64,000 nt of DNA from Eriocheir sinensis (taxonomy: Eukaryota; Arthropoda; Malacostraca; Decapoda; Varunidae): assembly GCF_024679095.1 (NCBI RefSeq), contig NW_026111184.1, forward strand, positions 248,001 through 312,000. Direction: 5' to 3'. Below, one piece after another: positions 1-64,000 of the stretch. The notes beneath the pieces were generated by a model that saw only the letters and a list, made by a program, of their open reading frames with translations, made no database searches and was not told where the DNA came from. The first letter of the stretch is position 1; every line of letters begins with the position of its first letter. The position numbers and the translations under genes were made by a program.

Positions 1-300
1 TCATGTGTATTTTGCATATCTATTTTCAAACAAACAGTATAAAATAACGTTTTATTAATATTCTGTGTATTTGTTTTGATACGATTTTACATTATTCTAT
101 TTGTGTTTTGTATATATTTTTTTATACATATTTACATTATTTAATGTGTATTTTGTATATTTTAAAACAAATTTACGTTATTTTATGCGCATCTGTTAAA
201 ATACTTTGTTACAAATTTACATTATTTTATGTATTTTGTATATATATTTCAATACAAATTTAGTTTATTTTATGAATATTTTGTATATCTATTTTCATTC
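1..300 (+). repeat. block 1, F orientation
   Basis: About seven monomers. It carries a marker shared with 43.0-43.24 kb (direct) and 61.11-61.4 kb (inverted): a unit reading GCGCATCTGTTAAAATA. It ends at a switch where TTTTCATTC meets GTATCAAAATAAATAAAC. It contains no gene. Confidence 0.85.
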
Positions 301-973
301 GTATCAAAATAAATAAACAAAATAGCAATAAAATAATGTAAATTTGCATGAGAAAACATATACAAATACACATAAAATAACGCAAATTTCTAAAAAAATA
401 TATGTACAAAAATGCACATAAAATAAAGTAAATTTGCATAAAAATATATATACAAAACAAACTTTAAATAATGTAAATGCGTACATAAAATAACCTAAAT
501 TTGTATAAAACTATATACAAAAATACACAAAAATATATATACAAAAAACAAATAGAATAATGTAAAATCGTATCAAAATAAATACACTGAATATTAATAA
601 AATACCATGAATTTGTATGAAAATATAGATTCAAAATTCTCAAATTGCGCATTTCTTATAAAAATATATATACCAAAATACACATAAAATATTTAAATTT
701 GTATTGAAATAAATATACAAAATGCACATACAATAAGGTAAACTTCTATTGAAAGAGATATGCAAAAATACATTTAAAACAATGTAAATTTGTTTCAAAA
801 TATATATACGAATACATATAAAATAACGTAGATTTCTATAAAAATATATATACAAAATACACATAAAATTAACTAAATACGTATAAAAAAAATGTAAACA
901 AAATACACATAAAATAATGTAAACTCGAAACAAAATAAATACACAAAATACCAATAAAAGAATGTGTATTTGT
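300..973 (-). repeat. block 2, R orientation
   Basis: About 15 monomers in reverse sense. The part from about 640 is the inverse of 18,700-19,030. The part from 300 to 540 is the inverse of 60,885-61,110, including an apparent deletion join near 530-540 (AAAATATATATACAAAAAAC). It ends where AATGTGTATTTGT runs into TCTGTGTATTTTTG. Confidence 0.85.
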
Positions 974-3110
974 TCTGTGTATTTTTGTATATAGTTTTAT
1001 ACAAATTTGCGATTTTTTATGTGCATTTTGTATATTTATATTTATACAAATACACATTCTTTTATTGGTATTTTGTTTATTTATTTTGATACGATTTTTA
1101 TGTGTATTTTGTATTCATTTTTTTATACACATTCTTTTACTGGTATTTTGTTTATTTATTTTGATACGATTTTTATGTGTATTTTGTATATATTTTTATA
1201 GAAATCAACGTTATTTTATATGTATTCGTATATATATTTTGAAACAAATTTACATTGTTTTATATGTATTTTGAATATCTATTTCAATACAAATTTACCT
1301 TACAGTATGTGCATTTTTTATATTTATTTTAATACAAATTTTAATATTTTATGTGTATTTTGGTATATATATTTTTATAAAAAAATGCGTTATTTTATGG
1401 CTATTTTGCATCTTTATTTTCATACAAATTTACATTATTTTATTAATGTTCTGTGTATTTATTTTGATACGATTTTACATTATTCTATTTGTGTTTTGTA
1501 TATATTTTTTTATACATATTTACATCATTTAATTAGTATTTTGTATATATATTTCATACAAATTTACATTATTTTAAGTGTATATGTTTATATATTTTCA
1601 TTCAAATTTCCATTATTTTATGTGTATTTTGTATATGTATTTCAATACAAATTTATCTAATTTTATGTGTATTTTGTATATATATTTCTATAGAAATCTA
1701 CGTTATATTATGTGTATTCGTATATAGATTTTTAAACAAATTTACACTTTTATGTGTATTTTGCATATTTTTTCAATACAAATTTACCTTATTCTATATG
1801 CATTTTGTATATTAATTTTAATAGAAATTTAATTATTCTATGTGTATTTTTGTATATGTATTTTTAAAAAAATATGCTTTATTTTATGGGTATTTTGCAT
1901 CTTTATTTTCATACAAAATTTACGTTATTTTATTGATATTCTGCTCATTCATTTTGATACGATTTGACATTATTCTATGTGTATTTTGTATATATTTTTC
2001 ATACATATTTACGTTATTTTATGTGTATTTGTTTATATATTTTGACACAAATTTACAATATTTTATGGGTATTTTGTATATATATTTCAAAAGAAATTTA
2101 CATAGTTTTATGTGTATTTTGAATATCTATTTTCATACAAACTCAAATTATTTATATGTATTTTTGTATATATTTCAATACAAATTTTAGTTATGTTATG
2201 TGTATTTTGTAAATCTATTTTCATTCAAATATATATTATTTTATTGGTATTTTGTTGATTTATATTGATACGAATTTGCATTTTTTTATATGTACTTTTT
2301 ATATATATTTTTATACGCATTTACATTATTTAATATTTATTTTGAATATATAATTTTATACAAATTCATGGTATTTTATGTGTATTTGTATATATATTTT
2401 CATAAATTTACATTATTTTATGTGTATTTTGTACATATATTTCATTACAAATTTACCTTATTTTATGTTTATTTTGTATGTGTATTTTGCACATTTATTT
2501 TTATACACGCTCACTCATACAAATTTATATTATTTTATTGGTATTTTGTTTATTTATTATGATACGAATTACATGATTATATGTGTATTTTGTACACATT
2601 TTTTTATACGTATTTACATTATTTAATATGTATTTTGTTTATATATTTTCATACAAATTTACGTTATTATATGTGTATTTGTATAAATATTTTGATACAA
2701 ATCTACTTTATTTCATGTATTTTGTATATATATATTTCAATTCAAATTTAGCTTATTTAGTGTGTATTTTGTATATATTTTCATACAAATTTAATTACTT
2801 CTGTGTATTTTTGTATATAGTTTTATATAAATTTACGTAATTTTATGTGTATTTTGTATATTTATATTTATACAAATACACATTCTTTTATTGGTATTTT
2901 GTTTATTTATTTTGATACGAATTTACATTATTTTATGTGTATTTTGTATACATTTTTTTATACGTATTTACTTCATTTTATGTGTATTTTGTATATATTT
3001 TTATAGAAATCTACGTTATTTTATGTGTATTCGTATACATATTTTGAAACAAATTTACATTGCTTTATATGTATTTTGCATATCTATTTCAATACAAATT
3101 TACCTTATTG
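973..3110 (+). repeat. block 3, F orientation
   Basis: About 47 monomers. It is the inverted counterpart of 16,370-18,697, and therefore also of 58.2-60.45 kb. Markers shared by these copies include the ACACGCTCACTCATAC stretch near 2,502 and the ACACATTCTTTTACTGG unit near 1,130. Confidence 0.85.
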
Positions 3111-3785
3111 TACATATAAAACAATGTAAATTTGTTTCAAAATATATGTACGAATACACATAAAATAACGTAGATTTCTATAAAAATATATATACAAAAT
3201 ACACATAAAATTAAGTAAATACGTATAAAAAATGTAAACAAAATACACATAAAATAATGTAAATTCGAAACAAAATAAATAAACAAAATACCAATAAAAG
3301 AATGTGTATTTGTATAAATATAAATGTACAAAATACACATACAAAATAAACATAAAATAAGGTAAATTTGTAATGAAATATATGTACAAAATACACATAA
3401 AATAATGTAAATTTATATGAAAATATATATATAAATACACAAAAAATAATGTAAATTCGTAAAAAATTAAATACACAAAATTCCAATAAAAGAATGTATA
3501 TTTGTAGGAAAATATATATATACAAAAAACAAATAAAATAACTAAAATTTGTATAAAAATATATACAAAAATACACAAAAATAATTTAAATTTGTTTGAA
3601 AATAGATATGCAAAATACACATAAAGTTAGGCAAATTTGTATTGAAATATATATACAAAACTCACATAAAATAATGTAAATTTGTATGAAAATATATAAA
3701 CAAATACATATAAAATAACGTAAATTTGGATAAAATATATATACAAAATATACATTAAATATTTTAAATATTTAAATATATTATA
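3110..3785 (-). repeat. block 4, R orientation, short form
   Basis: Inverse of 14,845-16,370 but about 850 bp shorter, so one of the two has a large internal deletion or insertion. It begins at a switch with TTGTACATATAAAACAATG. It ends in an AT-only stretch (TTAAATATTTAAATATA) at the recurring junction near 3,785. Confidence 0.8.
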
Positions 3786-6700
3786 TATATTTTTATTGAT
3801 ATTTGCGTTATTTATGTGTATTTTGTATATGTTTTCTCATAGAAATTTACATTATTTTATTGGTATTTTGTCTATTTATTTTGATACGAATTACATGATT
3901 ATTTGTGTATTTTGTACATTTTTTTATACGTATTTACATTATATAATGTGTATTTTGTTTATATATTTTTATACAAATTTACGTTATTATATGTGTATTT
4001 GTATAAGTATTTTGATACAAATTTACATTGTTTTATGTATTTTGTATATATATTTCAATTCAAATTTAGCTTATTTTATGTGTATTTTGTATATCTATTT
4101 ATTTTAATACAAAATCAAATATTTTATGTTTTTTCGTATATATTTTTTTTTTTTTAAAATGCGTTATTTTATGGGTATTTTGCATCTTATTTTTCATACA
4201 AATTTACATTATTTTATTAATATTTTCTGTATTTATTTTGATACGATTATACATTATTTTATTTGTGTTTTGTATATATTTTTTTATACATATTTACATT
4301 ATTTAATGTCTTTTTTGTATATATATTTAATACAAATTTACGTTATTTTAAGTCTATATGTTTATATATTTTCATTCAAATTTACATTATTTTATGTGTA
4401 TTTTGTATATGTATTTCAATACAAATTTACCTAATTTTATATGTTTTTTGTATATTTATTTTCATACAAGTTTAAATTATTTTTGTGTATTTTTGTATAT
4501 AGTTTTATACAAATTTATGTTATTTTATGTGTATTTTGTATATCTATTTTCATACAAATACACATTCTTTTCATGATATTTTGTTTATTTATTTTGACAC
4601 GAATTAACATTATTTAATGAGTATTTTGTATATATATTTTTATACGTATTTACATTATTTCAAGTGTATTTTGTATATATATTTCTATAGAAATCTGCGT
4701 TATTTTATGTGTATTCGTATATATATTTTGAAACAAATTTACATTGTTTTATGTGTATTTTGCATATTTTTTTAATACAAATTTACCTTATTGTATGTGC
4801 ATTTTGTATATTAATTTTAATACAAATTTGATTAATCTATGTGTATTTTTGTATATGTATTTTTATAAAAATATGCTTTATTTTATGGGTATTTTGCATC
4901 TTTATTTTCATACAAATTTACATTATTTTATTGATATTCTGTGTATTTATTTTGATATGATTTTACATTATTCTATGTGTATTTTGTATATATATCTTAT
5001 ATAAAATGTATTTGTTTTCATTTCATACAAATCTACATTATTTTATGTGTTTTTTGTACATGTATTTAAATACAAATTTAACTAGTTATATGTGTATTTT
5101 GTATATCTATTTTGTATGTATATTTTCATAGAACTTTACTCTATTTTATGAGTATTCGAATATATATTTTGATACAAATTTACATTATTAATGTGTATTT
5201 TGCATATCTATTTCAATACAAATTTACTTTATTGTACGTTCATTTTGTATATTTATTTTAATACAAATTTAATTATTTTATATGTCTTTTTGTATATATA
5301 TTTTTATGCAAATATGCGTTATTATATGGATATTTTGCATCTTTATTTTCATACAAATTTACATTATTTTATTGATATTCTCTTTATTTATTTCATACGA
5401 TTTAACATTATTCTATGTGTTTTTTGTATATAGTTTTTTATATATATATTTACATTATTTAATGTTCATTTTGTATATATATATGTTCATTTTGTATATA
5501 TATTTTATCCAAATTTACATTATTTTATGTGTATTTGTTTATATATTTTCATACATATTTACATTATTTTATGTGTTTTTTGTATATATATTTTTCTACG
5601 TATTTAAATTATTTTATGTGTATTTTGTATATACATTTTCATAAAAAAAATTACGTTATTTTATTGTGTGTATAAATATATATTTTGATACAAATTTTAT
5701 ACAAATTCATGTTATTTAATGTGTATTTGTATATATATTTTCATACAAATTTATATTATTTTATGTGTATTTTTTCATATATTTCATTACAAATTTACCT
5801 TATTTTATGTTTATTTTGTATATTTATTTCATTCAATTTTAAATTATTTTATGTGTATATTTGTATTTGTATTTAGGTTATTTTATATGCATTTTCTATA
5901 TATATGTTCATCCAACATTACATTATTTTATTGGTATTTCTTATTTTACTTCGATACGAATTTAGATTAGTTCATAGGTCTTTGGTAGACATATTTTTAT
6001 ACTCATTTACATTATCTCATGTGTGTTTGGTATATATTTTTATGCAAATTTATTTTATGTTCATTTTTGTACATATATTTTTATAGAAATCTGCGTTATT
6101 TTATGTATATAGTTTTATATAAATTTACGTTATTTTATGTGCATTTTGTATATTTATATTTATACAAATCCATATTCTTTTATTGATATATTGTTTATTT
6201 ACATTTATACGAATTTACATTATTTTATGTGTATTTTGTATACATTTTTTTTATACGTATTCACTTAATTTGATGTGTAATTTGTATATGTATTTTTTTT
6301 ATAGAAATCTACGTTATTTTATGTGTATTCGTATATATATTTTGAAACAAATTTACATTATTTTATATGTATTTTCCATATCTATTTCAATACAAATTTA
6401 CCTTATTGTATCTGCATTTTGTATATTTATTGTAATACAAGTTCAAATATTTTATGTTTATTATTGTATCAATAATTTTATAAAAATTTAGTTATTTTAT
6501 ATGTATTTTGAATCTTAATTTTAATTTTATATTTACTTTGTATAGATATTTTATACGCTCTTACATTATTTAATATTTATTTTGAATATATATTTTATAC
6601 AAATTCATGGTATTTTATGTGTATTTGTATATATATTTTCATATAAATTTACATTATTGTATGTGTATTTTGTACATATATTTCATTACAAATCTATCTT

Positions 6701-7388
6701 ATTTTATGTTTATTTTGTATGTGTATTTTGTATATTTATATTTATCAAATACACATTCTTTTATTAGTATTTTTTATTTATTTTAATTCGAGTTTACATT
6801 ATTTTATGTGTATTTTGAATACATTTTTTATACGTATTTACTTAATTTTATGTGTATTTTGTATATATAATTTTATAGAAATCTTCGTTTTTATTTGTTT
6901 TAGTATATATATTTTGAAACAAATTTACATTGTTTTATATGTATTTTGCATATCTCTTTCAATACAAATTTACCTTATTGTATATGCATTTTGTAAATTT
7001 ATTTCAATACAAATTTAAAAAAATTATGTGTATTTTGGTATATATATTTTATAAGAAATACGCTATTTTATAGAATTTTGCATCTTTATTTTCATACAAA
7101 TTTATATTATTTTATTAATATTTGGTGTAATTATTTTGATACGATTTTACATTATTCTATTTGTTTTTTGTATACTTTTTATACATATACATTATTTAAT
7201 GTGTATCTTGCATATATATTTTATACAAATTTATTATCTATTTGCATACAAATACACATTCTTTTCATGATATTTTGTTTATTTATTTTGACACTAATTT
7301 ACATTATTTGATATGTATTTTGTATATATATTTTTATACGTATTTACATAATTTCATATGTATTTTGTATATATATTTAATAGATATT
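3785..7388 (+). repeat. block 5, F orientation
   Basis: About 80 monomers. From 3,796 to about 6,530 it is the inverse of about 11,830-14,810. From about 6,540 it joins different material related to 21.7-22.2 kb and then 26.8-27.1 kb. It includes a 21-22 bp slippage duplication at about 5,462-5,505 that the sister copies lack. The switch at about 7,388 lies inside the TA core of a monomer. Confidence 0.85.
5462..5505 (+). repeat. 21-22 bp slippage duplication
   Basis: ATGTTCATTTTGTATATATA occurs twice in a row. Sister copies near 12,850 (inverted) and 56,730 have it once, so it is specific to copy A. Confidence 0.85.
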
Positions 7389-8403
7389 CAAAATACACAT
7401 AAAATAACCTAAATTTGTATCAAACTATATACAAAAATATTTTAAATTTGTATGAAAATAAATATACAAAATACACATAAAATTAGGTAAATTTGTATGG
7501 AAATACATATACAAAATACACATAAAATAATGTAAATTTGAATGAAAATACATAAACAAATACACTTAATATAACGTAAATTTGTATAAAAAAAATATAT
7601 ACAAAACACAAATAGAATAATGTAAAATCGTATCAAAATAAATACACAGAATATTAATAAAATAATGTAAATTTGTATGAAAATAAAGAGGCAAAATACC
7701 CAAAAATAACGCATTTTTTTATTTATAAAAATATATATACCAAAATACACATAAAAAAATTAGATTTGTATTAAAAAAAATATATAAAAAACACATACAT
7801 TAAGGTAAATTTGTATTGAAATAGATACGCAAAATACATATAAAGCAATGTAAATTTGTTTCAAAATATGTATACGAATACACATAAAATAACGTAGATT
7901 TCTATAAATATATATATATACAAAATACACATAAAATGAAGTAAATACGTATAAAAAAATGTATACAAAATACACATAAAATAATGTAAATTCGTATCAA
8001 AATAAATAAACAAAATACCAATAAAAGAATGTGTATTTGTATAAATATAAATATACAAAATACACATAAAATAACGTAAATTTATATAAAACTATATACA
8101 TAAATACACAGAAGTAATTAAATTTGTATGAAAATATATACAAAATACACACAAAATAAGCTAAATTTGATTTGAAATATATATACAAAATACATGAAAT
8201 AAAGTAAATTTGTATCAAAATATTAATACAAATACACATATAATAACGTAAATTTGTATGAAAATATATAAACAAAATACACATTAAATAATGTAAATAC
8301 GTATAAAAAAATGTGTACAAAATACACATATAATCATGTAATTCGTATCAAAATAAATAAACAAAATACCAATAAAATAATATAAATTTGTATGAGTAAA
8401 CGT
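7388..8403 (-). repeat. block 6, R orientation
   Basis: About 22 monomers. It closely resembles 20.2-21.2 kb and 22.5-23.53 kb, and all three end at the same switch with TGTATGAGTAAACG followed by GTTGCATATTTTTTCAAT. It is one arm of a recurrent R+F composite. Confidence 0.85.
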
Positions 8404-9977
8404 GTATGTTGCATATTTTTTCAATACAAATTTACCTTATTATATACTCATTTTGTGTATTAATTTTAATATATGTGTATTTGAATATATATTTTGATAC
8501 AAATTTACATTATTATATGTATTTTCTATATTTATTTCAATTCAAATATAGCTTATTTTATGTGTCTTTTGTATATCTATTTTCATAAAAATTTAATTAT
8601 TTTTGTTTATTTTTGTATATAGTTTTATACAATTTTAGTTATTTTATGTGTATTTTGTATATTTATATTTATACAAGTAAAAATTCTTTTATTTGCATTT
8701 TGTATATTTATTGTCATACAAATTTAAATATTTTATATGCATTTTGGTATATATATTTTCATAAAAAATGCGTTGTTTTATGGGTATTTTGCATCTTTAT
8801 TTTCATACAAATTTACATTATTTTATTAATATTCTGTGTATTTATTTTGATACTATTTTACATTATTCTATTTGTGTTTTCTATATATTTTTTTATACAT
8901 ATTTACATTATTTAATGTGTATTTTCTACATATATTTCATACAAATTTTCGTTATTTTAAGTGTATTTGTTTATATATTTTTATTCAAATTTACATTATT
9001 TTATGTGTATTTTGTATATGTATTTCAATAGAAATTTTCCTAATTTCATGTGTATTTTGTATATATATTTTATACAAATTTAAATTATTTTTTGTGTATT
9101 TTTGTATAGAGTTTTCTACAAATTTATAATATTTTATGTGTATTTTGTATATCTATTTTCATACAAATACACATTCTTTTATTGATATTTTGTTTATTTA
9201 TTTTGATGCGAATTTACATTATTTAATGTATTGTGTATATATATTTTTATACGTATTTACGTCATTTCATGTGTATTTTGTATATATATTTCTATAGAAA
9301 TATTCGTTATTTTATGTGTATTCGTATATATATTTTGAAACATATATACATTGTTTTATGTGCATTTTGCATATTTTTTCAATACAAATTTACCTTGTTG
9401 TACGTGCATTTTGTATATTAATTTTAATTCAAATTTAGCTATTCTATGTGTATTTTTGTATATGTATTTTTATAAAAATATGCTTTATTTTATGGGTATT
9501 TTGCATCTTTATTTTCATACAAAGTTACATTATTTTATTGATATTCTGTGTATTTATTTTGATACGATTTTACATTATTCTATGTATATTTTGTATATCT
9601 ATTTTATACTAATGTACGTTATTTTATGTGAATTTGTTTTCATTTCATACAAATTTACATTATTTTATGTGAATTTTGTTCATGTATTTAAAAACAAATT
9701 TAACTAATTATATGTGTATTTTGTATATCTATTTTCATACAAATTGAAATTAATTTTGTGTATTTTTGTATATATTCTTATTCAAATTTGCGTAATTTTA
9801 TGTGTATTTTGTATATTTATTTTCTTACAAATATACGTTCTTTTATCGGAATTTTATTTATTTATTTTGATACGAATTTTCATTTTTTTAGGTGTATTTG
9901 ATATATATATTTTTATACTTATTTACATAATTTTATATGTATTTTGAATATATATTTTCATAGAAATTTACTCTATA

Positions 9978-9978
<1 letters not shown>
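8403..9978 (+). repeat. block 7, F orientation
   Basis: About 35 monomers. The part 8.6-9.13 kb is the inverse of 29.4-29.9 kb and of 49.75-50.1 kb: all share the unusual GTTTTCTATATA and ATTTCAATAGAAATTTTCCT variants or their complements. It ends at the recurring F-to-R switch CTCTATATGTATATGTATAG. Confidence 0.8.
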
Positions 9979-14844
<4,866 letters not shown>

Positions 14845-14845
<1 letters not shown>

Positions 14846-19650: not shown

Positions 19651-21202
<1,552 letters not shown>

Positions 21203-21203
<1 letters not shown>

Positions 21204-45824: not shown

Positions 45825-46473
45825 TTTATTTCATACAAATTGAAATTATTTTGTTTATTTTTTTATATATTTTCGAACAAATTTTCGTTATTTTATGTGT
45901 ATTTTGTATATTTATCTTTTCTACAAATATACGTTCTTTTATCTGAATTTTGTTTATTGAATTTGAAACGAATTTACCTTATTTTGTATATCTATTTTCA
46001 TACAAATTAAAATACTTCTGTGTATTTTTGTAGTTTTATATAAATTTACGTTATTTTATGTGTATTTTGTATATTTATATTTATACAAATAAACATTCTT
46101 TTATTGGTGTTTTGTATATTTATTTTGATACGAATTTACATTATTTTATGTGTATTTTGCATATTTTTTTTATACGTATTTACTTCATTTTATGTGTATT
46201 TTGTATATATATTTTTATAGAAATCTATGTTATTTTATGTGTATTCGTATATATATTTTGAAACAAATTTACATTGTTTTATATGTATTTTGCATATCTA
46301 TTTCAATACAAATTTACCTTATTGTATGTGTTTTTTATATATTTATTTTAATTCAAATTTAATTTTTTTATGTGTATTTTGGTATATATATTTTTATAAA
46401 TAAAAAAAAGCGTTATTTTATGGGTATTTTGCCTCTTTATTTTCATACAAATTTACTTTATTTTATTAATATT
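45808..46473 (+). repeat. block 27, F orientation
   Basis: About 15 monomers between two switches. The order of variants is the usual one (ACATTCTTTTATTGG, TATACGTATTTACTTC, AGAAATCTATG, CAAATTTACATTG). The right switch reads TTATTAATATTCAAAATAC. Confidence 0.85.
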
Positions 46474-50709: not shown

Positions 50710-50730
50710 AAATAATAATAATAATAATAA
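50710..50730. repeat. (AAT)n run, duplicated copy
   Basis: Partner of the run at 34,464-34,480, followed by the same unrelated segment. It is pure AAT, about seven steps. Confidence 0.9.
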
Positions 50731-50761
50731 ATGGTCTATTCATTTGTAGGAAGCCATTAAA
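50731..50761. other. non-satellite segment, copy 2
   Basis: Identical by eye to the segment at 34,481. TGGTCTATT starts at 50,732 here and at 34,482 there (offset 16,250). The insertion therefore predates the large direct duplication and is the best near-unique landmark in the window. Confidence 0.75.
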
Positions 50762-52794
50762 TAATGTAAACTCGCGTCAAAATAAATAAGCAAAATATCA
50801 ATAAAAGAATGTGTATTTGTATGAAACTAGATATAGAAAATACACATAAAATAACCTAAATTTGTATAAAACTATATACAAAACAACACAAAAATAATTT
50901 AAATTTGTATGAAAATAAATATACAAAATACACATAAAATTAGGTAAATTTGTATTGAAATACATATACAAAATACATTTAAAATAATGTAAATTTGAAT
51001 GAAATTATATAAAGAAATACACTTAAAATAACGTAAATTTGTATAAAATATATATAAAAAATACATTAAATAATGAAAAAATGTATAAAAAAATATATAC
51101 AAAACACAAATAGTATAATATAAAATCGTATCAAAATATATACACAGAATATTAATAAAATAATGTAAATTTGTATGAAAACTAAGATGCAAAATATCTA
51201 TAAAATAACGCATTTTTTTAAATCATATATACCAAAATACACATAAAATAATTGAATTTGTATTAAAATAAATATACAAAATGCACATACAATAAGGTAA
51301 ATTTGTATTGAAATAGATATGCAAAATACATATAAAACAATGTAAATTTGTTTCAAAATATATATACGAATACACAAATAATAACGTAGATATCTATAAA
51401 AATATATATACTAAAAGCACATAAAATTAAGTAAATACGAATAGAAAAAGTACACAAAATACACATAAAATAATGTAAATTCGTATAAATATAAATAAAC
51501 AAAATACCAATAAAAGAATGTGTATTTGTATAAATATAAATATACAAAATGCACATAAAATAACGTAAATTTGTATAAAACTATATACAAAAATACTCAG
51601 AAGTAATTAAATTTGTATGAAAATAGATATACAAAATACACACAAAATAAGCTAAATTTGAATTGAAATACATATACAAAATATATAAAATAAAGTAAAT
51701 TTGTTTCAAAATATTTTTAACAAATACACATATAATAACGTAAATTTGTATAAAAATATATAAAACAAAATACACATTAAGAAATATAAATACGTATACA
51801 AAAAATATGTACAAAATACACAAATAATCAAGTCATTCGTATCAAAATAAATAAACAAAAAACTAATTAAATAATGTCAATTTGTATGAGAAAACATATA
51901 CAAAATACACATAAAATAACGCAAATTTCTATAAAAATATATGTACAAAAATGCACAAAATTAATTTGCATAAAAAATATATATACAAAACACACATTAG
52001 ATAATGTAAATGAGTATAAAAATATGTATACAAAATACCTATGAAATAATCTAAATTCGTATCGAGTTAAATTAAGAAAATAACAATAAATTAATGTAAT
52101 TTTGGATGAAAATATATATAGAAAACACACATAAAATAACCTAAATACAAATAGATATAAACACATTAAATAATTTAAAATTGAATGAAATAAATATACA
52201 AAATAAACATAAAATAAGGTAAATTTGTAATAAAATATATGTAAAAATACACATAAAATAATATAAATTTGTATGAAAATATATATACAAATACACATAA
52301 AATAACATGAATTTGTATAAAATTTGTTTCAAAATATATACGAATACACACAATAAAATAACGTAAATTTTTATGAAAATGTATATATAAAATACACATA
52401 AAATAATTTAAATACGTAGAAAAATATATATACAAAATACACATAAAATAATGTAAACTCGTAACAAAATAAATACACAAAATTCCAATAAAAGAATGTA
52501 TATTTGTAGGAAAGTATATATACAAAAAACAAATAAAATAACTAAAATTTGTATAAAAATATATACAAAAATACACAAAAATAATTTAAATTTGTTTGAA
52601 AATAGATATGCAAAATACACATAAAGTTAGGCATATTTGTATTGAAATACATATACAAAACTCACATAAAATAATGTAAATTTGTATAAAAATATATATA
52701 CAAATACACATAAAATAACGTAAATTTGGATAAAATATATATATACAAAATATACATTAAATATTTTAAATATGTATAAAAATATATTATATCA

Positions 52795-53582
52795 TATATA
52801 TTTTTATTGACATTTGCGTTATTTATGTGTATTTTGTATATGTTTCTCATAGAAATTTACATTATTTTATTGGTATTTTGTCTATTTATTTTGATACGAA
52901 TTACATGATTGTTTGTGTATTTTGTACATTTTTTTATACGTATTTACATTATTTAATGTGTATTTTGTTTATATATTTTTTTACAAATTTACGTTATTAT
53001 ATGTGTATTTTTATAAGTATTTTGATAAAAATTTACATTATTTTATGTATTTTGTATATATATTTCAATTTAAAATTTAGCTTATTTTATGTGTATTTTG
53101 TATATCTATTTAATACAAATTTAATTACTTTTATGTATTTTTTGTACATAGTTTTATATAAATTTACGTTATTTTATGTATTTTGTATATTTATATTTAT
53201 ACAAACACATTCTTTTATTAGTATTTTGTTTATTTATTATGATACGAGTTTACATTATTTTATGTGTATTTTGTATACATTTTTTTATACGTATTTACTT
53301 AATTATATGTGTATTTTGTATATATATTTTAATAGAAATCTCCGTTATTTTAGGTGTATTCCTTTATATATTTTGAAACAAATTTACATTGTTTTATATG
53401 TATTTTGCGTATCTATTTCAATACAAATTTTTATTGTATGTGCATTTTGTATACTTATTTTAATACAAAATCAGATATTTTATGTGTTTTCGTATATATA
53501 TTTTTATAAAAAATGCGTTATTTTATGCGTATTTTGCATCTTAATTTTCATACAAATTTTCATTATTTTATTAATATTTCCA
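52795..53582 (+). repeat. block 29, F orientation
   Basis: About 17 monomers, direct copy of block 21. It has small indels relative to the partner; one changes TACTTTAATAC to TACTTATTTTAATAC, so the 45-bp register is kept here and lost there. It ends at TTAATATTTCCATTAG. Confidence 0.85.
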
Positions 53583-56500
53583 TTAGAATACACATGAAAT
53601 GTTGTAAATACGTATAAAAATATATATAATTTAAACTCAAATCAAAATAAATAATTAAAATATCAATAAAAGAATGTGTATTTGTATGAAAATACATATA
53701 CAAAATATACATAAAATAACGTAAATTTGTATAAAACAATATATAAAAATATGCAAAAATAAGTTAAATTTGTATGAAAATAAATATACAAAATATACAT
53801 AAAATTAGGTAAATTTGTAAAGAAATACATATACAAAATACACATAAAATATTGTAAATTTGAATGAAAATATATAAACAAATACACTTAAATTAACATA
53901 AATTTGTATAAAATATATATAAAAAATATTCATTAAATAATGTAAATATGTATAAAAAATATATATACAAAACACAAATAGAATAATGTAAAATCGTATT
54001 AAAATAAATATACAGAACATAAATAAAATAATGTAAATTTGTATGAAAATAAAGATGCAAAATACCCATAAAATAACTTATTTTTTATAAATATACAAAA
54101 TACACATGAAAGGATGTAAATACGTATAAAAATATATATACAAAATACATTAAATAATGTAAATTCGCGTCAAAATAAATAAACAAAATGTCAATAAAAG
54201 AATGTGTATTTGTATGAAAATAAATATACAAAATACACATAAGATAACATAAATTTGTATAAAACTATATACAAAAATACACAAAAATAATTTAAATTTG
54301 TATGAAAATAAATATACAAAATACATATAAAATTAGGTAAATTTGTATTGAAATACATATACAAAATACACATAAAATAATGTAAATTTAAATGAAAATA
54401 CATAAACAAATACATTTAAAATAACGTAAATTTCTATATAAAAAAAAAACACAAAACACAAATAGAATAATGTAAAATCGTATCAAAATAAATACACAGA
54501 ATATAAATAAAATAATGTAAATTTGTATGAAAATAAAGAAGCAAAATACCCATAAAATAACGCATTTTTTTTAAATATATATACAAAAATACACATAAAA
54601 AATTTATTTGTATTAAAATAAATATACAAAATACACATACAATAAGGTAAATCTGTATTGAAATAGATATGCAAAATACATATAAAACAATGTAAATTTG
54701 TTTCAAAATATATATACGAATACACATAAAATAACGTAGATTTGTATAAAAATATATATACAAAATACACGTAAAATGAAGTAAATACGTATAAAAAAAT
54801 GTATACAAAATACACATAAAATAATGTAAATTCGTATCAAAATAAATAAACAAAATACCAATAAAAGAATGTGTATTTGTATAAATATAAATATACAAAA
54901 TACACATAAAATAACGTAAATTTATATAAAACTATATACAAAAATACACAGAAGTAATGAAATTCGTATGAAAATAGATATACAAAATACAGATAAAATA
55001 AGCTAAATTTGAATTGAAATGTATATACAAAATTCATAAAATAATGTAAATTTGTATCAAAATATTTATAAAAATACATATAATAACGTAAATTTGTTTA
55101 AAAATATATAAACAAAATACACATTAAGTAATGTAAATACGTAAAAAAATATGTACAAAATACACATATAATCATGTAATTCGTATCAAACTAAATAAAC
55201 AAAATAGCAATAAAATAATGTAAATTTGTATGAGAAAACATATACAAATACATATAAGATAACGCTAATTTCTATAAAAATATATGTCCAAAAATGAACG
55301 TAAAATAAATTAACTTTGGATAAAAATATATACAAAAAACACAATAAATAATGTAAATGCGTACATAAAATAACCTAAATTTGTATAAAACTATATACAA
55401 AAATACACAAAAATAATTTAAATTTGTATGAAAAGAAATATACAAAATACACATATAATTAGGCTAATTTCTATTGAAATACATATACAAAATACACATA
55501 AAATAATGTAAATTTGAAAGAAAATATATAAACAAATACACATATAATAACGTAAATTTGTATGAAATATATATACAAAATACACATTAAATAATGTAAA
55601 TATGTATAAAAAAAAATATATACAAAACACAAATAGAATAATGTAAAATCTTATCAAAATATATACACAGAATATTAATAAAATAATGTAAATTTGTATG
55701 AAAATTAAGATGCAAAATACCTATAAAATAACGCATTTTTTATAAAATTATTGATACCAAAATACACATAAAATATTTGAATTTGTATCAAAATAAATAT
55801 ACAAAATGCACATACAATAAGGTAAATTTGTATTGAAATAGATATGCAAAATACATATAAAATAATGTAAATTTGTTTCAAAATATATATGCGAATACAC
55901 ATAAAATAACGTAGATTTCTATAAAAATACATATACAAAATACACATAAAATTAAGTAAATACGTATAAAAAAATGTATACAAAATACACACAAAATAAT
56001 GTAAATTCGTATAAATATAAATAAACAATATAGCAATAAAAGAATGTGTATATGTATAAATATAAATATATAAAATACACATAAAATAACGTAAATTTAT
56101 ATAAAACTATATACATAAAATAACGCAAATTTCTATAAAAATATATGTACAAAAATGAACATAAAATAAATTTGCATAAAAATATATATACAAAACACAC
56201 ATTAGATAATGTAAATGAGTATAAAAATATGTATACAAAATACCTATGAAATAATCTAAATTCGTATCGAATTAAATTAAGAAAATACCAATATAATAAT
56301 GAATTTTGGATGAAAATATATATACAAAATACGCATAAAATAACCTAAATACAAATACAAATATACACATAAAATAATTTAAAATTGAATGAAATAAATA
56401 TACAAAATAAACATAAAATAAGGTAAATTTGTAATAAAATATATGAAAAAATACATATAAAATAATATAAATTTGTATGAAAATATATATACATATACAC

Positions 56501-59500
56501 ATTAAATAACATGAATTTGTATAAAATTTGTATCAAAATATATACTTATACACACAATAAAATAACGTAATTTTTTTATGAAAATGTATATACAAAATAC
56601 ACATAAAATAATTTAAATACGTAGAAAAATATATATACAACAAACACATAAAATAATGTAAATATGTATGAAAATAAATAAACAAATCCACATAAAATAA
56701 AGTAAATTTGGATAAAATATATATACAAAATGAACATTAAATAATGTAAATATGTATAAAAAAAATATATGCAAAAAACACATAGAATAATGTTAAATCG
56801 TATCAAAATAAATAAAGAGAATATCAATAAAATAATGTAAATTTGTATGAAAATAAAGATGCAAAATATCCATATAATAACGCATATTTGCATAAAAATA
56901 TATATACAAAAATACATATAAAATAATTAAATTTGTATTAAAATAAATATACAAAATGCACGTACAATAAAGTAAATTTGTATTGAAATAGATATGCAAA
57001 ATACACATTAATAATGTAAATTTGTATCAAAATATATATACGAATACTCATAAAATAGAGTAAATTTCTATGAAAATATACATACAAAATAGATATACAA
57101 AATACGCATAATATAATGTAGATTTGTATGAAATGAAAACAAATACATTTTATATAAAATAAATATACAAAATACACATAGAATAATGTAAAAACATATC
57201 AAAATAAATACACAGAATATCAATAAAATAATGTAAATTTGTATGAAAATAAAGATGCAAAATACCCATAAAATAAAGCATATTTTTTATAATAATACAT
57301 ATAGAAAAATACACATAGATTAATCAAATAATGTAAATTTGAATGAAAATATATAAACAAATACACTTAAATTAACATAAATTTGTATAAAATATATATA
57401 AAAAATACTCATTAAATAATGTAAATATGTATAAAAAATATATATACAAAACACAAATAGAATAATGTAAAATTGCATTAAAATAAATATACAGAATGTA
57501 AATAAAATAATGTAAATTTGTATGAAAATAAAGATGCAAAATACCCATAAAATAAAGCATTTTTTATAAATATACAAAATACACATGAAAGGATGTAAAT
57601 ACGTATAAAAATATATATACAAAATACACATTAAATAATGTAAATTCGCTTCAAAATAAATAAACAAAATGTCAATAAAAGAATGTGTATTTGTATGAAA
57701 ATAAATATACAAAATACACATAAGATAACATAAATTTGTATAAAACTATATACAAAAATACACAAAAATAATTTAAATTTGTATGAAAATAAATATACAA
57801 AATACACATAAAATTAGGTAGATTTGTATTGAAATACATATACAAAATACACATAAAATACTGTAAATTTGAATGAAAATACATAAACAAATACACTTAA
57901 AATAACGTAAATTTGTATAAAAAAATATATACAAAACACAAATAGAATAATGTAAAATCGTATCAAAATAAATACACAGAATATTAATAAAATAATGTAA
58001 ATTTGTATGAAAATAAAGAAGCAAAATACCCATAAAATAACGCTTTTTTTTTAAATATATATACAAAATACACATAAAAATTTATTTGTATTAAAATAAA
58101 TATACAAAATACACATACAATAAGGTAAATCTGTATTGAAATAGATATGCAAAATACATATAAAACAATGTAAATTTGTTTCAAAATATATATACGAATA
58201 CACATAAAATAACGTAGATTTCTATAAAAATATATATACAAAATACACATAAAATGAAGTAAATACGTATAAAAAAATGTATACAAAATACACATAAAAT
58301 AATATAAATTCGAATCAAAATAAATAAACAAAATACCAATAAAAGAATGTGTATTTGTATAAATATAAATATACAAAATACACATAAAATAACGTAAATT
58401 TATATAAAACTATATACAAAAATACACAGAAGTAATTAAATTTGTATGAAAATATATACAAAATACACACAAAATAAGCTAAATTTGAATTGAAATATAT
58501 ATATACAATATACACGAAATAAAGTAAATTTGTATCAAAATATTTATACAAATACACATATAATAACGTAAATTTGTATGAAAATATATAAACAAAATAC
58601 ACATTAAATTATGTAAATACGTATAAAAAAATGTGTACAAAATACACATATAATCATGCAATTTGTATCAAAATAAATAAACAAAATACCAATAAAATAA
58701 TATAAATTTGTATGAGAAAACGTGTATAAATATAAATGTACAAAATACACATACAAAATAAACATAAAATAAGGTAAATTTGTAATGAAATATATGTACA
58801 AAATACACATAAAATAATGTAAATTTATATGAAAATATATATACAAATACACATAAAATACCATGAATTTGTATAAAATTATATATTCAAAATAAATATT
58901 AAATAATGTAAATGCGTATAAAAATATATATAAAAAGTACATATAAAATAATGTAAATTCGAATCAATATAAATCAACAAAATACCAATAAAATAATATA
59001 TATTTGAATGAAAATAGATTTACAAAATACACATAACATAACTAAAATTTGTATTGAAATATATACAAAAATACATATAAATAGTTTGAGTTTGTATGAA
59101 AATAGATATTCAAAATACACATAAAACTAGGTCAATTTCTTTTTGAAATATATATACAAAATACCCATATAAAATTGTAAATTTGTGTCAAAATATATAA
59201 ACAAATACACATAAAATAACGTAAATTTGTATGAAAAATATATACAAAATACACATAGAATAATGTCAAATCGTATCAAAATGAATGAGCAGAATATCAA
59301 TAAAATAACGTAAATTTTGTATGAAAATAAAGATGCAAAATACCCATCAAATAAAGCATATTTTTATAAAATTACATATACAAAAATACACATAGAATAA
59401 TTAAATTTGTATTAAAATTAATATACAAAATGCATATACAATAAGGTAAATTTGTTTTGAAAAAATATGCAAAATACACATATAAGTGTAAATTTGTTTA

Positions 59501-60455
59501 AAAATCTATATACGAATACACATAATATAACGTAGATTTCTATAGAAATATATATACAAAATACACATGAAATTATGTAAATACGTATAAAAATATATAT
59601 ACAAAATACACATTAAATAATTTAAATTCTCGTCAAAATAAATAAACAAAATATCAATAAAAGAATGTGTATTTGTATGAAAATAGATATACAAAATACT
59701 CATAAAATAACCTAATTTTGTATAAAACTATATACAAAAATACACAAAAATAATTTAAATTTGTATGAAAATAAATATACAAAATACACATAAAATTAGG
59801 TAAATTTGTATTGAAATACATATACAAAATACACATAATATAATGGAAATTTGAATGAAAATATATAAATATATACACTTAAAATAACGTAAATTTGTAT
59901 CAAATATATATACAAAATACTAATTAAATAATGTAAATATGTATAAAAAAATATATACAAAACACAAATAGAATAATGTAAAATCGTATCAAAATAAATA
60001 CACAGAATATGAAGAAAATAATGTAAATTTGTATGAAAATAAAGATTCAAAATAGCCATAAAATAACGAATTTTTTATAAAAATATATATACCAAAATAC
60101 ACATAAAATATTAAAATTTGTATTAAAATAAATATAAAAAATGCACATACTGTAAGGTAAATTTGTATTGAAATAGATATGCAAAATACATATAAAACAA
60201 TGTAAATTTGTTTCAAAATATATATACGAATACAAATAAAATAACGTTGATTTCTATAAAAATATATTCAAAATACACATAAAATGAAGTAAATACGTAT
60301 AAAAAAATGAATACAAAATACACATAAAATCGTATCAAAATAAATAAACAAAATACCAGTAAAAGAATGTGTATTTGTATAAATATAAATATACAAAATA
60401 CACATAAAATATCGTAAATTTGTATAAAACTATATACAAAAATACACAGAACAAA
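53582..60455 (-). repeat. block 30, R orientation
   Basis: About 150 monomers. It is collinear with 10.3-12.6 kb and 16.4-18.7 kb, but an extra block at about 57.33-58.4 kb is a second copy of 53.9-55.0 kb (AAGATAACATAAATTTG near 54,241 and 57,722). It contains no switch. Confidence 0.85.
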
Positions 60456-60885
60456 TACACATTCTTTTATTGGTATTTTGTTTATTTATTTTGTTTCGAA
60501 TTTACATTATTTTATGTGTATTTTGTTTACATTTTTTTATACGTATTTACTTAATTTTATGTGTATTTTTGTATATATTTATAGAAACGTTATTTTATAT
60601 ATATTCGTATATATATTTTGAAACAAATTTACATTGTTTTAAATGTATTTTGCATATCTCTTCAATAGGTTTACTTATTGTATGTGCATTTTGTATATTT
60701 ATTTCAATACAAATTTAAATATTTTATGTGTATTTTATATATATATTTTATAAGAAATGCGGTATTTGATGGAATTTTGCATCTTTATTTTCATACAAAT
60801 TTACATTATTTTATTATTCGGTGTATTTATTTTGATACGATTTTACATTATTCTATTTGTTTTTTGTATATATATTCTTGTGTAT
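53590..60885 (-). repeat. segmental copy C
   Basis: Direct counterpart of about 10.3-19.1 kb, with an internal deletion and an internal duplication. It lacks the TA expansion of B and lacks the R-to-F-to-R excursion at 14.85-16.37 kb. The switch at 60,455 and its flanks equal those at 18,697. Confidence 0.7.
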
Positions 60886-61110
60886 TTTTGTATATAGTTT
60901 TATACAAATTTAGGTTATTTTATGTACGCATTTACATTATTTAATGTGTGTTTTGTATATATATTTTTATGCAAATTTACTATTTTATGTGCATTTTTGT
61001 ACATATATTTTTTTAGAAATTTACGTTATTTTATGTGTATTTGTATATGTTTTCTCATGCAAATTTACATTATTTTATTGCTATTTTGTTTATTTATTTT
61101 GATACGAATG
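60455..61110 (+). repeat. block 31, F orientation
   Basis: About 14 monomers. It starts at the same switch as 18,697 and ends at the same switch as 300 and 43,238, so it is the mirror image of block 2. Several monomers are shortened (for example near 60,590 and 60,665). Confidence 0.85.
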
Positions 61111-61880
61111 AAAATAGATAAAAAAAATATACATAAAATAAACTAAATTTGTATTGAAATATATATACAAAATACATAAAATAATGTAAATTTGTATCAA
61201 AATATTTTAACAGATGCGCATAAAATAACGTAAATTTGTTTTAAAATATACAAAATACACATTAAATAATGTAAATATGTATAAAAAAATATACAAATCA
61301 CAAATAGAATAATGTAAAATCGTATCAAAATAAATACACAGAATATTAATAAAACAATGTAAATTTGTATGAAAATAAAGATGCAAAATACCCATTAAAT
61401 AACGCATTTTTTATAAAAATATATATACCAAAATACAAATGAAAAAATTAATTTGTATTAAAATAAATATACAAAATACACATACAATAAGGTAAATCTG
61501 TATTGAAATATATATGCAAAATACATATAAAACAATGTAAATTTGTTTCAAAATACATATACGAATACACATAAAATAAAGTAGATTTGTATAAAAATAC
61601 ATATACAAAATACACATTAAATGAAGTAAATACGTATAAGAAAATGTATACAAAATACACATAAAATAATGTAAATTCGTATCAAAATAAATAAACAAAA
61701 TACCAATAAAAGAATGTGTATTTGTATAAATATAAATATACAAAATACACATAAAATAACGTAAATTTGTATAAAACTATACAAAAATACACAGAAGTAA
61801 TTAAACTCGTATGAAAACAAATATACAAAATACAGATAAAATAAGCTAAATTTGAATTGAAATGTATATACAAAATACAA
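61110..61880 (-). repeat. block 32, R orientation
   Basis: About 17 monomers. The first 290 bp are the inverse of 1-300, and to about 61,620 it is the inverse of 42,722-43,238. It ends where ATATACAAAATACAATATTT switches sense. Confidence 0.85.
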
Positions 61881-62515
61881 TATTTTATGTGTATATTTGT
61901 ATTTGTATTTAGGTTATTTTATGTGTATTTTGTATATATATTTCCATCCAAAATTACATTATTTTATTGGTATTTTCTTAATTTAATTCGATACGAATTT
62001 AGATTATTTCATAGGTTTTTTCTATACATATTTTATACTCATTTACATTATCTAATGTGTTTTTGTATATATATTTTGTGCAAATTTATTTATGTTCATT
62101 TTGTTCATATATTTTTATAGATTTTTGCGTTATTTTTTGTATATAGTTTTATATAAATTTACGTTATTTTATGTGCATTTTGTATATTTATATTTATACA
62201 AATACACATTCTTTTATTGGTATATTGTTTATTTACATTTATACGAATTTACATTATTTTATGTGTATTTTGTATACATTTTTTTATACGTATTTACTTA
62301 ATTTTATATGTATTTTGTATACGTATTTTTATAGAAATCTACGTTATTTTATGTGTATTCGTATATATATTTTGAAACAAATTTACATTATTTTATATGT
62401 ATTTTGCATATCTATTTCAATACAAATTTACCTTATTGTATGTGCATTTTGTATATTTATTTTAATACAAATTGAAATGTTTTATGTGTATTTTGGTATC
62501 AATAATTTTATAAAA
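61880..62515 (+). repeat. block 33, F orientation
   Basis: About 14 monomers. Direct copy of about 5,845-6,490 and inverse of about 11,870-12,490. Shared rare variants include ATTTAGATTA with ATTTCATAGG, and TATCAATAATTTTATAAAAA at the right edge. Confidence 0.85.
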
Positions 62516-63132
62516 AAAACGTAAATTTGTATAAAAAAATATGTACAAAACACAAATAGAATAATGTAAAATCGTATCAAAATAAATACACAGAATATTA
62601 ATAAAATAATGTAAATTTGTATGAAAATAAAGAAGCAAAATACCCATAAAATAACGCATTTTTTATTTATAAAATATATATACCAAAATATACCTAAAAA
62701 ATTAAATTTGTATTAAAATAAATATACAAAAACACATACAATAAAAGGTAAATTTGTATTGAAATAGATATGCAAAATACATATAAAACAATGTAAATTT
62801 GTTTCAAAATATATATACGAATACACATAAAATGACGTAGATTTCTATATTGAAATATATATACAAAATACATGAAATGAAGTAAATACGTATAAAAAAT
62901 GTATACAAAATACACATAAAATAATGTAAATTCGTGTCAAAATAAATAAACAAAATACCAATAAAAGAATGTGTATTTGTATAAATATAAATATACAAAA
63001 TACACATAAAATAACGTAAATTTGTATAAAACTATACAAAAATACACAGAAGTAATTAAATTTGTATGAAAATATATACAAAATACGCACAAAATTAGCT
63101 AAATTTGAATTGAAATATATATACAAAATACA
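62515..63132 (-). repeat. block 34, R orientation
   Basis: About 14 monomers of the 20.35-21.0 kb type. The left switch is TTTTATAAAAAAAACGTAAA. The right switch is ATATACAAAATACATTTATT. Confidence 0.85.
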
Positions 63133-63200
63133 TTTATTTTGCATATCTATTTTCAAACAAATTTAAATTATTTTTGTGTTTTTATATATTATTTTATTAT
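63132..63200 (+). repeat. block 35, 70-bp F island
   Basis: About one and a half forward monomers (TTTGCATATCTATTTTCAAA) between reverse blocks, ending in TTTTATATATTATTTTATTA. It resembles the CAAACAAATTTAAATTATTT unit seen near 15,016. Confidence 0.7.
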
Positions 63201-63482
63201 ACATAGAATAATGTAAAATCGTATCAAAATAAGTACACAGAATATCAATAAAATAATTTAAATTTGTATGAAAATAAAGATGCAAAATACCCATAAGATA
63301 AAGCATTTTTTTTTAAATACATATACAAAAATACACATAGAATAATTAAATTTGTATTAAAATTAATATACATAATGCACACATACAAAAAGGTAAATTT
63401 GTATTGAAAAAAAACGCAAAATACAAATAAAACAGTGTAAATTTGTTTCAAAATATATATACGCATGCATATAAAATAACGT
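63200..63482 (-). repeat. block 36, R orientation
   Basis: About six monomers of the ACATAGAATAATGTAAAATC and GATGCAAAATACCCATA types. It ends after an unusual ACGCATGCATATAAAATAAC at 63,461. Confidence 0.8.
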
Positions 63483-64000
63483 GTATATTGTATATCTATT
63501 TTCATACAAATACACATTCTTTTATTGATATTTTGTTTATTTATTTTGACGCGAATTTACATTATTTAATGTGTATTTTATATATATATTTTTATACGTG
63601 CTTATATCATTTGATGTGTATTTTGTATATATATTTCTATAGAAATCTACGTTGATTTATGAGTATTCGTATATAGATTTTGAAATAAATTTACTCTGTT
63701 TTATGTGTATTTTTCATATTTTTTCAATACAAATTTACCTTATTGTATATGCATTTTGCATATTAATTTTAATACAAATTTAATTAAGCTATGTGTATTT
63801 TTGTATATGTATTTTTATAAAAATATGCTTTATTTTATGGGTATTTTGCATTTTTATTTTCATACAAATTTACATTATTTTATTTATATTCTGTTTATTT
63901 TTTTTAAACAATTTTACATTATTCTATGTGTATTCTGTATATCTATTTTATACGTATTTACTTAATTTTATGTGTATTTTGTATATATATTTTTATAGAA
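63482..64000 (+). repeat. block 37, F orientation, continues past the window
   Basis: About 11 monomers to the window edge. It resembles 9.15-9.6 kb and 4.5-4.95 kb (TTTATTGATATTTTG, TTTTTTCAATACAAATTTAC, AAATATGCTTTATTTTATGG). The array clearly continues beyond 64,000. Confidence 0.85.

What the first reader, a model, noticed from the sequence alone, without database searches (positions are those of the whole stretch)
1..64000. A bidirectional mosaic satellite: about 37 orientation blocks in 64 kb
Ordinary tandem satellites run head to tail for long distances. Here the same 45-bp monomer flips direction about 36 times, in blocks from about 70 bp to 7.8 kb. The flips can be read directly from whether TGTGTATTTTG or its complement appears. 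This suggests an array maintained by inversion, fold-back duplication and template switching as well as unequal exchange.
Basis: seen in the sequence. Interest (0 to 1): 0.75.

Follow-up and report, generated by a model that had tools for sequence, protein, structure and literature searches.

The report
Two-way satellite with reused flip points
A very abundant AT-rich 45-base repeat runs in alternating directions, flipping about every two thousand bases, and many of its flip points are old copies that recur elsewhere in the genome, two of them more than a thousand times each.

Summary
A two-orientation profile of the 45-bp monomer divides the window into 37 blocks with 36 switches, 65 to 7,787 bp long. 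The count holds over five switch penalties, and a re-oriented control gives 0.

The 36 switches are 22 junction types. Thirty have a homologue in the 285 kb of satellite sampled, 26 on other contigs. The two types counted genome-wide have 7,874 and 1,222 copies. Some runs of blocks recur up to 31 Mb apart with lengths kept within about ten bases.

So most switches were probably not made here. They are old joins inherited inside copied and shuffled two-way modules. Most breakpoints show no fold-back arms, preferred phase or reciprocal partner, against simple balanced inversion. Where flanks are still shared, they are as conserved as the junctions.

The satellite is roughly 7% of a 1.77-Gb assembly (my estimate), equally common on both strands. 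Closest known: macro-dyad satellites of Tribolium beetles.

The parts
1..64000 (.). 45-bp AT-rich satellite array, both orientations; it continues on both sides of the window
   Evidence: continuation
1..296 (+). orientation block 1 (begins before the window)
297..973 (-). orientation block 2
974..3110 (+). orientation block 3
3111..3781 (-). orientation block 4
3782..7378 (+). orientation block 5 (its junction pair and length recur at C1:30.03 Mb)
7379..8401 (-). orientation block 6 (1,023 bp here, 1,032 bp at C1:30.03 Mb)
8402..9982 (+). orientation block 7
9983..14824 (-). orientation block 8
14825..16367 (+). orientation block 9
16368..18696 (-). orientation block 10
18697..19643 (+). orientation block 11
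19644..21203 (-). orientation block 12
21204..22275 (+). orientation block 13, + half of the 2.33-kb two-way module
22276..23532 (-). orientation block 14, - half of the 2.33-kb two-way module
23533..24602 (+). orientation block 15, + half of a second module copy
24603..24811 (-). orientation block 16
24812..26284 (+). orientation block 17
26285..26442 (-). orientation block 18
26443..28760 (+). orientation block 19
28761..36547 (-). orientation block 20 (longest)
36548..37358 (+). orientation block 21
37359..38427 (-). orientation block 22
38428..38536 (+). orientation block 23
38537..42723 (-). orientation block 24
42724..43230 (+). orientation block 25
43231..45808 (-). orientation block 26
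45809..46467 (+). orientation block 27
46468..52792 (-). orientation block 28
52793..53579 (+). orientation block 29
53580..60450 (-). orientation block 30
60451..61109 (+). orientation block 31
61110..61880 (-). orientation block 32
61881..62512 (+). orientation block 33; same junction pair and similar length (637 and 641 bp) at two sites on C1
62513..63132 (-). orientation block 34
63133..63197 (+). orientation block 35 (shortest)
63198..63482 (-). orientation block 36
63483..64000 (+). orientation block 37 (cut by the window end)
1171..7050 (.). left arm of a macro-dyad: two overlapping inverted matches (89.9% and 84.5%) to 11548-18310; contains J3 and J4, partners of J9 and J8; J2 just outside pairs with J10
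11548..18310 (.). right arm of the macro-dyad
12871..13182 (.). (TA)n tract inside the array
19891..20004 (.). (TA)n tract inside the array
24964..25103 (.). (TA)n tract inside the array
37566..37655 (.). (TA)n tract inside the array

Best explanation
This is a very abundant 45-bp satellite whose arrays are patchworks of a limited stock of two-way (bidirectional) higher-order modules. Each orientation switch arose rarely, by a non-homologous join of two opposed stretches, most likely replication template switching or insertion of an inverted copy (inferred). After that the join was inherited as part of a segment. Segments of tens to thousands of bases around the switches were copied in tandem and between distant arrays by segmental duplication, unequal exchange and conversion (copying shown from sequence; the enzymatic route inferred). 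Copying also seems to run between opposed blocks, so '+' and '-' blocks stay alike (inferred from the painting). The window is therefore mainly a record of copying and shuffling of old switches, with few new flips.
For: Thirty-six switches form 22 junction types; 7 types hold 21 of the 36. With the fetched stretches of C960, C1 and C2 there are 152 switches in 284,872 bp of satellite, window included; they form 51 types, 126 of 152 lie in 25 multi-copy types, and 14 types stand on two or more contigs. Of the 116 switches outside the window 76 match a window switch, as do 52 of 82 on C1/C2. Null: 1 of 100 artificial joins of real '+' and '-' pieces matches any real junction. Genome-wide, a 36-bp pattern across type B (8401, 21203, 23532; up to 3 mismatches) has 3,893 + 3,981 matches, backward control 0 + 0; type H (3110, 16367) has 631 + 591, control 0 + 0, and the 100 places listed for it lie on 30 contigs. 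Runs recur with block lengths kept: A-3597-Q-1023-B in the window and A-3599-Q-1032-B at C1:30.03 Mb; K-632/637/641-L at three places; B-272-X-95-B at two places 31 Mb apart; the 2.33-kb module (+1,054-1,073 / -1,251-1,266 bp) stands in tandem at C1:43.946-43.955 Mb, and one and a half copies lie in the window. Painting the window from itself, '+' blocks take 67% of their length from inverted donors (68% expected if direction does not matter), '-' blocks 20% (32% expected).
Against: Genome counts were obtained for only 2 of 22 types. Six of 36 window switches (26442, 38427, 42723, 53579, 63132, 63197) had no match in the sample and could be recent; their genome counts could not be obtained (type H, seen only on C960 in the sample, did prove genome-wide). 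The template-switching step is inferred: whole blocks have unbroken copies elsewhere, but no better ones than random fragments (median 90.4% against 89.9%, p 0.30, 23 of 35 internal blocks), and microhomology at junctions is at best weak (+-5 bp p 0.07, +-10 bp p 0.83). Shared flanks are short on some sides: for J6/J12 the right side falls after 50 bp, for J7/J23 the left side after 100 bp. The fetched stretches were chosen at listed satellite places on two scaffolds plus this contig, not at random, and switch density differs between them (0.10 to 0.79 per kb). '-' blocks take less from inverted donors than free exchange predicts.
Confidence: 0.78

Rival explanations
1. One reading: flips arise continually in place by inversion, fold-back and template switching, so the 36 switches are mostly separate events.
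For: Twenty-two types in 64 kb is still many; 6 of 36 are unmatched in the sample; the J3/J9 type has 92-95% palindromic arms; 2 of 35 blocks fit a balanced inversion at both edges.
Against: Thirty of 36 switches have homologues; the two types counted have over a thousand copies each, J3/J9 being one of them; balanced-inversion phases and reciprocal junctions are at chance; arm similarity is within the random range for 34 of 36 junctions.
Confidence: 0.12
2. Switch points are kept by selection because opposed blocks form hairpins or a chromatin fold, for example at (peri)centromeres, as proposed for Tribolium.
For: Switches occur in all 11 stretches examined, 0.53 per kb overall; one rotation of the monomer consensus folds better than 99.6% of 500 shuffles; strand use is balanced genome-wide; among copies of a type the share still alike falls with distance from the junction, as a conserved core would give, though the types were defined at the junction.
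Against: Where flanks are still shared they are as alike as the junction; junction hairpins are not better than those of artificial joins (p 0.87 and 0.10); many junction types with no preferred phase. No chromatin data.
Confidence: 0.15
3. The switches are assembly artefacts (chimeric fold-back reads or wrong joins).
For: Satellites are hard to assemble; a gap of 100 N lies at an array edge (C1:43.94 Mb); no reads could be checked.
Against: Arms at the junctions are at best 95% alike, so none is a perfect palindrome; the same junctions with nearly equal block lengths on separate contigs; 7,874 copies of one. Fold-back artefacts would be expected to give near-identical arms and private joins.
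Confidence: 0.04
4. The modules are spread by a mobile element or circular DNA that carries two-way satellite pieces, so dispersal is by insertion and not by exchange between arrays.
For: Matches cluster at several separate sites on one 45-Mb contig; one array edge abuts a LINE tail and the same tail sequence lies inside another array.
Against: No tRNA, no Rfam family and no element ends were seen in the window; only one array edge without a gap was read next to a long flank, so this is hardly tested.
Confidence: 0.15

Closest known systems
Macro-dyad satellite arrays TmSat1/TmSat2 of Tribolium madens (PMC13081366; passages, section 7 part 1 and section 10 part 1 read)
   Same: Satellite monomers change direction inside arrays, giving inverted subarrays; inversion sites fall into types repeated thousands of times (paper: 2,044 and 3,486 copies, 98.9% and 98.2% alike); short dyads within the subunits.
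   Different: There predominantly two subarrays per array, two predominant inversion types for TmSat1, repeats of 225 and 704 bp, intermingled major and minor satellites. Here one 45-bp monomer, median block 1,071 bp, 51 junction types in 285 kb. This assembly is 1.77 Gb; the paper gives about 300 Mb (assembly 360 Mb) for T. madens.
Human satellite HSAT2 arrays in opposite orientations (PMC10138405, passages read)
   Same: Arrays of one satellite lie on both strands; inversions are reported.
   Different: The passages describe hits on opposite strands, in some subfamilies both; they mention no dense switching with a reused stock of junctions.
CUS-TR24 satellite of Cuscuta europaea (PMC8091179, passages read)
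   Same: Satellite arrays cut up by simple repeats, with segmental duplications and inversions; LINEs nearby.
   Different: Neighbourhoods in opposite orientation are less frequent there (10-15% against 40-45% in the same orientation); no list of recurrent junctions in the passages read.
Higher-order repeats of centromeric satellites (general knowledge, recalled)
   Same: Multi-monomer units copied in tandem (2.33-kb module).
   Different: Here the higher-order unit itself contains both orientations.

Membership tests
Satellite DNA (long tandem arrays) | Head-to-tail monomers over long distances, high copy number | tested here: met
   45-bp period through 64 kb; 811,671 matches of a 24-bp motif genome-wide, backward control 140
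Satellite DNA (long tandem arrays) | Non-coding | tested here: met
   50% of 1,319 monomer spacings are multiples of 3, mostly because 45 is; no tRNA, no Rfam family. Long open frames on the T-rich strand exist
Macro-dyad satellite arrays (Tribolium type) | Direct and inverted subarrays forming palindrome-like structures of kilobases | tested here: met
   Arms 1171-7050 and 11548-18310, 84.5-89.9% identical, with mirrored switches
Macro-dyad satellite arrays (Tribolium type) | Recurrent, highly conserved inversion sites | tested here: met
   7,874 and 1,222 copies of two junctions; 93-99% mean pairwise identity in the first 50 bp for six types
Macro-dyad satellite arrays (Tribolium type) | Diverged subunits at the inversion point, distinct from the standard ones | not tested
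   Divergence of junction monomers from the standard monomer was not measured
Macro-dyad satellite arrays (Tribolium type) | Predominantly two subarrays per array | tested here: not met
   37 blocks in 64 kb; no whole array was read end to end, but single stretches hold up to 58 switches
Macro-dyad satellite arrays (Tribolium type) | Putative (peri)centromeric location | not testable with these tools
   No cytology or CENP-A data; matches cluster at several sites of one 45-Mb contig
Higher-order repeat | Multi-monomer unit in tandem, copies more alike than monomers | tested here: met
   2.33-kb unit, 95% between neighbouring copies in the window; tandem series on C1
Fold-back inverted duplication | Palindromic arms next to the junction, more alike than random opposed pieces | tested here: not met
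   J3 and J9 (one type) reach the top 1.5-2% of random pairs; the other 34 do not, the nearest being J10 at 8%
Balanced inversion | Matching monomer phase at both edges of the flipped block | tested here: not met
   12 of 70 edges within 3 bp, 10.9 expected; 2 of 35 blocks fit at both edges; reciprocal pairs not in excess

The most novel reading that the evidence does not exclude
A second lineage, apart from Tribolium, has independently built a major satellite from a fixed stock of two-way modules with conserved flip points, spread to arrays on many contigs. Array direction would then be a heritable, module-level trait that is either actively spread (by circular or mobile DNA) or kept because opposed blocks matter for chromatin. 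The flip points would be natural markers that let satellite exchange be traced between chromosomes.
Probability: 0.3. Interest if true: 0.78.

Novelty: new variant of a known kind. Interest (0 to 1): 0.6.

Why it matters
Satellite arrays are usually modelled as one-way head-to-tail repeats kept alike by unequal crossing over. Here direction changes about every 2 kb, yet most of the changes seen are shared with other places. That makes each flip point a tag in otherwise uniform repeat, so one can trace which arrays exchanged pieces and how far. It also bears on a current proposal: in Tribolium, conserved inversion sites were read as a sign of possible function, and here similar conservation of flips and still-shared flanks fits simple copying.

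Tried and rejected
Coding potential: 45 = 15 codons leaves long open frames on the T-rich strand, but about half of the monomer spacings are not multiples of 3. One 201-aa database entry (P0001, source ENA) is a read-through of the same satellite (94% over 85% of the first query sequence). Searches for the satellite in viral contigs, bacterial/archaeal genomes, phages and plasmids found no relative (in 41 and 42, 16 and 87 stretches matched a peptide pattern and none was confirmed).

Junction types depend on the threshold: a first, loose linking tied nearly all junctions of a kind together at about 75% identity, the level of unrelated monomers; one search used the 99% level of a null, and 22 types also result at 84% identity. 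Pairs at 80-82% (J13/J33, J16/J36, J27/J29) may be older copies, so the types may be fewer. J11 and J35 may be one type: about 300 bp alike on one side, only about 30 bp beyond; they are counted apart, together. Type D merges two sub-variants by single linkage (39 of 78 pairs match directly).

Hairpin-guided flips: the monomer has a short dyad, but breakpoints show no preferred dyad centre (Rayleigh p 0.89), and the strong folding at junctions compared with block interiors is no more than artificial joins give (p 0.87 and 0.10).

Simple inversion and reciprocal junctions: at chance. Copy-insertion of whole blocks: unbroken copies exist for 34 of 35 internal blocks (13 of them at 90% or more), but they are not better than for random fragments.

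Organism: not identified. A flanking LINE has a reverse transcriptase domain. From memory only, that LINE resembles those of decapod crustaceans; no call supports this.
Full report
What is there. The window is one AT-rich satellite from end to end (16% G+C). A profile HMM with both orientations as states, trained on the window, gave a 45-bp consensus; monomers agree with it at about 86%, and 732 bases ((TA)n tracts and a few short pieces) fall outside it. It divides the window into 37 blocks with 36 switches, 65 to 7,787 bp. The number is the same for switch penalties 1e-4, 1e-8, 1e-12, 1e-20 and 1e-30; a lax 1e-2 gives 128. A control in which all blocks are turned one way gives 0. The T-A skew sign agrees in 37 of 37 blocks and 550 of 550 inner 300-bp windows.

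Few flip types. I compared the 150 bp on each side of every junction with all others of its kind, against a null of artificial joins with the same monomer phases. At the 99% level the 36 switches fall into 22 types, 7 of which hold 21 switches. Eighteen of the 21 linked pairs are 94-100% identical over 257-300 aligned columns, the other 3 are 87-88%. Going outward, copies stay mostly at 92-100% and then fall to background; the shared stretch runs from 50-100 bases (right of J6/J12, left of J7/J23) to over 1 kb, and some pairs have gaps in it. Two overlapping inverted matches, 1171-3769 with 18310-15709 (89.9%) and 3184-7050 with 15425-11548 (84.5%), form a macro-dyad with J3/J9 and J4/J8 as mirrored partners and J2/J10 just outside.

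The same flips elsewhere. The window lies at C960:248001-312000 in an assembly of 1.765 Gb and 2,158 contigs. A 24-bp satellite motif (up to 2 mismatches) has 405,827 forward and 405,844 reverse matches, with 92 and 48 in the backward control. The window itself has 399, which scales to about 130 Mb or 7% of the assembly (my estimate, assuming equal density). I read 240 kb more on C960 (605 kb), C1 (45.4 Mb) and C2 (32 Mb). All 11 stretches examined, the one with the window among them, switch direction: 152 switches in 284,872 bp of satellite, 0.53 per kb overall and 0.10 to 0.79 per stretch, median block 1,071 bp, 48% '+'. These form 51 types; 25 multi-copy types hold 126 of 152 switches, and 14 of them stand on two or more contigs. 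Twenty-six of 36 window switches have a homologue on C1 or C2 and 30 of 36 have one somewhere in the sample. Of 100 artificial joins, 1 matched a real junction. Genome-wide, junction type B has 7,874 matches (3,893 and 3,981 by strand) and type H 1,222 (631 and 591), none in the backward controls; the 100 places listed for H lie on 30 contigs, although in the sample H was seen only on C960. The stretches were picked at places listed and on C960, so rates are not from a random sample.

Modules. Lettering the types shows repeated words with block lengths kept within about ten bases: A-3597-Q-1023-B in the window and A-3599-Q-1032-B at C1:30.03 Mb; K-632-L, K-641-L and K-637-L in the window and at C1:12.95 and 43.94 Mb; B-272-X-95-B at C1:12.975 and 43.946 Mb. 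The 2.33-kb unit has a + block of 1,035-1,073 bp (7 cases) and a - block of 1,251-1,266 bp (6 cases); it stands in tandem at C1:43.946-43.955 Mb, with about one copy at C1:12.976 Mb and one and a half in the window. Other types, such as A, C and D, meet different partners at many distances, so stretches between switches are exchanged while the switches persist.

How flips arise. Balanced inversion predicts that the monomer phase is restored when a block is turned back: 12 of 70 edges are within 3 bp, 10.9 expected; 2 of 35 blocks fit at both edges, about 0.85 expected by my reckoning. Reciprocal partner junctions are not in excess at any of four tolerances. Fold-back predicts similar arms: J3 and J9 (one type) have 95% and 92% arms, reached by 1.5-2% of random opposed pairs, which is weak evidence among 36 tests; J10, J30 and J2 are at 8%, 12% and 28%; the other 31 are at 39% or more. 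Breakpoints have no preferred dyad centre (Rayleigh p 0.89), and agreement of the two sides is not raised over +-10 bp (p 0.83) and only weakly over +-5 bp (p 0.07). Whole blocks have unbroken copies elsewhere in 34 of 35 cases, but no better ones than random fragments (23 blocks tested, p 0.30), so this does not prove copy-insertion. What remains is a non-reciprocal join at more or less any monomer phase, as template switching or insertion of an inverted copy would give. This step is inferred.

How the array is kept. Painting each piece of the window with its best copy elsewhere in the window gives 155 segments (median 250 bp, mean identity 96.8%). A change of donor lies within 25 bp of 16 of 36 switches (about 4 expected by chance); the other 20 are painted straight through, 19 of them members of multi-copy types and the twentieth J11. 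'+' blocks take 67% of their length from inverted donors and '-' blocks 20%, where indifference to direction predicts 68% and 32%. So close copies are shared across orientations, with an excess of same-direction donors in '-' blocks. The painting picks one of several near-equal donors, so it shows relationship and not single events.

Function or hitchhiking. In Tribolium madens the authors read conserved inversion sites as possibly functional (PMC13081366). Here, for six types, mean pairwise identity is 93-99% in the first 50 bp and 92-99.5% in bins out to 450 bp. That comparison counts a bin only while it and all bins inside it are at least 85% alike, so it speaks of still-shared flanks; the share of pairs that stay alike falls with distance (type A, right side: 163 of 171 in the first bin, 24 of 171 at 400-450 bp). 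Junction windows do not fold better than artificial joins. This fits hitchhiking in copied segments. It does not exclude a function of opposed blocks as such.

Comparison and novelty. The closest known case is the Tribolium macro-dyads; the authors write that such symmetries had been documented only in that genus. Human HSAT2 and Cuscuta CUS-TR24 also have opposed arrays. In the listings of my paper searches I saw no description of a 45-bp satellite of this kind; they cover only the open library, and only listed titles and abstract starts were seen apart from the three papers named. I call it a new variant of a known kind.

Limits. No reads, no cytology, no species name. Genome counts were obtained for 2 of 22 window junction types because the genome search was mostly unreachable.

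Noticed in passing
12871-13182, 19891-20004, 24964-25103, 37566-37655; also C960:246668-246818, C1:12950770-12950962: Nearly pure (TA)n tracts of about 90-350 bp interrupt the array; for three of the four in the window the profile is left and re-entered near the TATATATA core of the monomer, as if that core had expanded.
   Followed up: partly
C1:12940822 (L016:822) and C1:18159925-18159986 (L024): The left edge of one array abuts a LINE 3' tail, and the same tail sequence (97% over 58 bp) lies inside another array, as if LINEs insert into or border the satellite.
   Followed up: partly
P0001 (201 aa, source ENA, contig of 11,780 bases): A predicted protein in the public database is a read-through of this satellite's open T-rich strand, 94% identical over 85% of a window frame; it looks like no real protein.
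   Followed up: yes
C960:228606-232773, C960:247832-251781 (window up to 3781), C960:327843-331334: The same run of junctions A-459/464-C-675/678-F-2137/2362-H occurs three times within 104 kb, hinting at modules of tens of kb.
   Followed up: partly
C1 near 12.94-13.11, 18.15-18.42, 20.18-20.73, 30.02-30.19, 33.41-33.63, 36.69-36.74, 38.42-38.46 and 43.94-44.89 Mb: Listed matches of the satellite motif and of two junctions cluster at several separate sites along one 45-Mb contig, so the satellite is not confined to one centromere-like place; the stretches between matches were mostly not read.
   Followed up: partly
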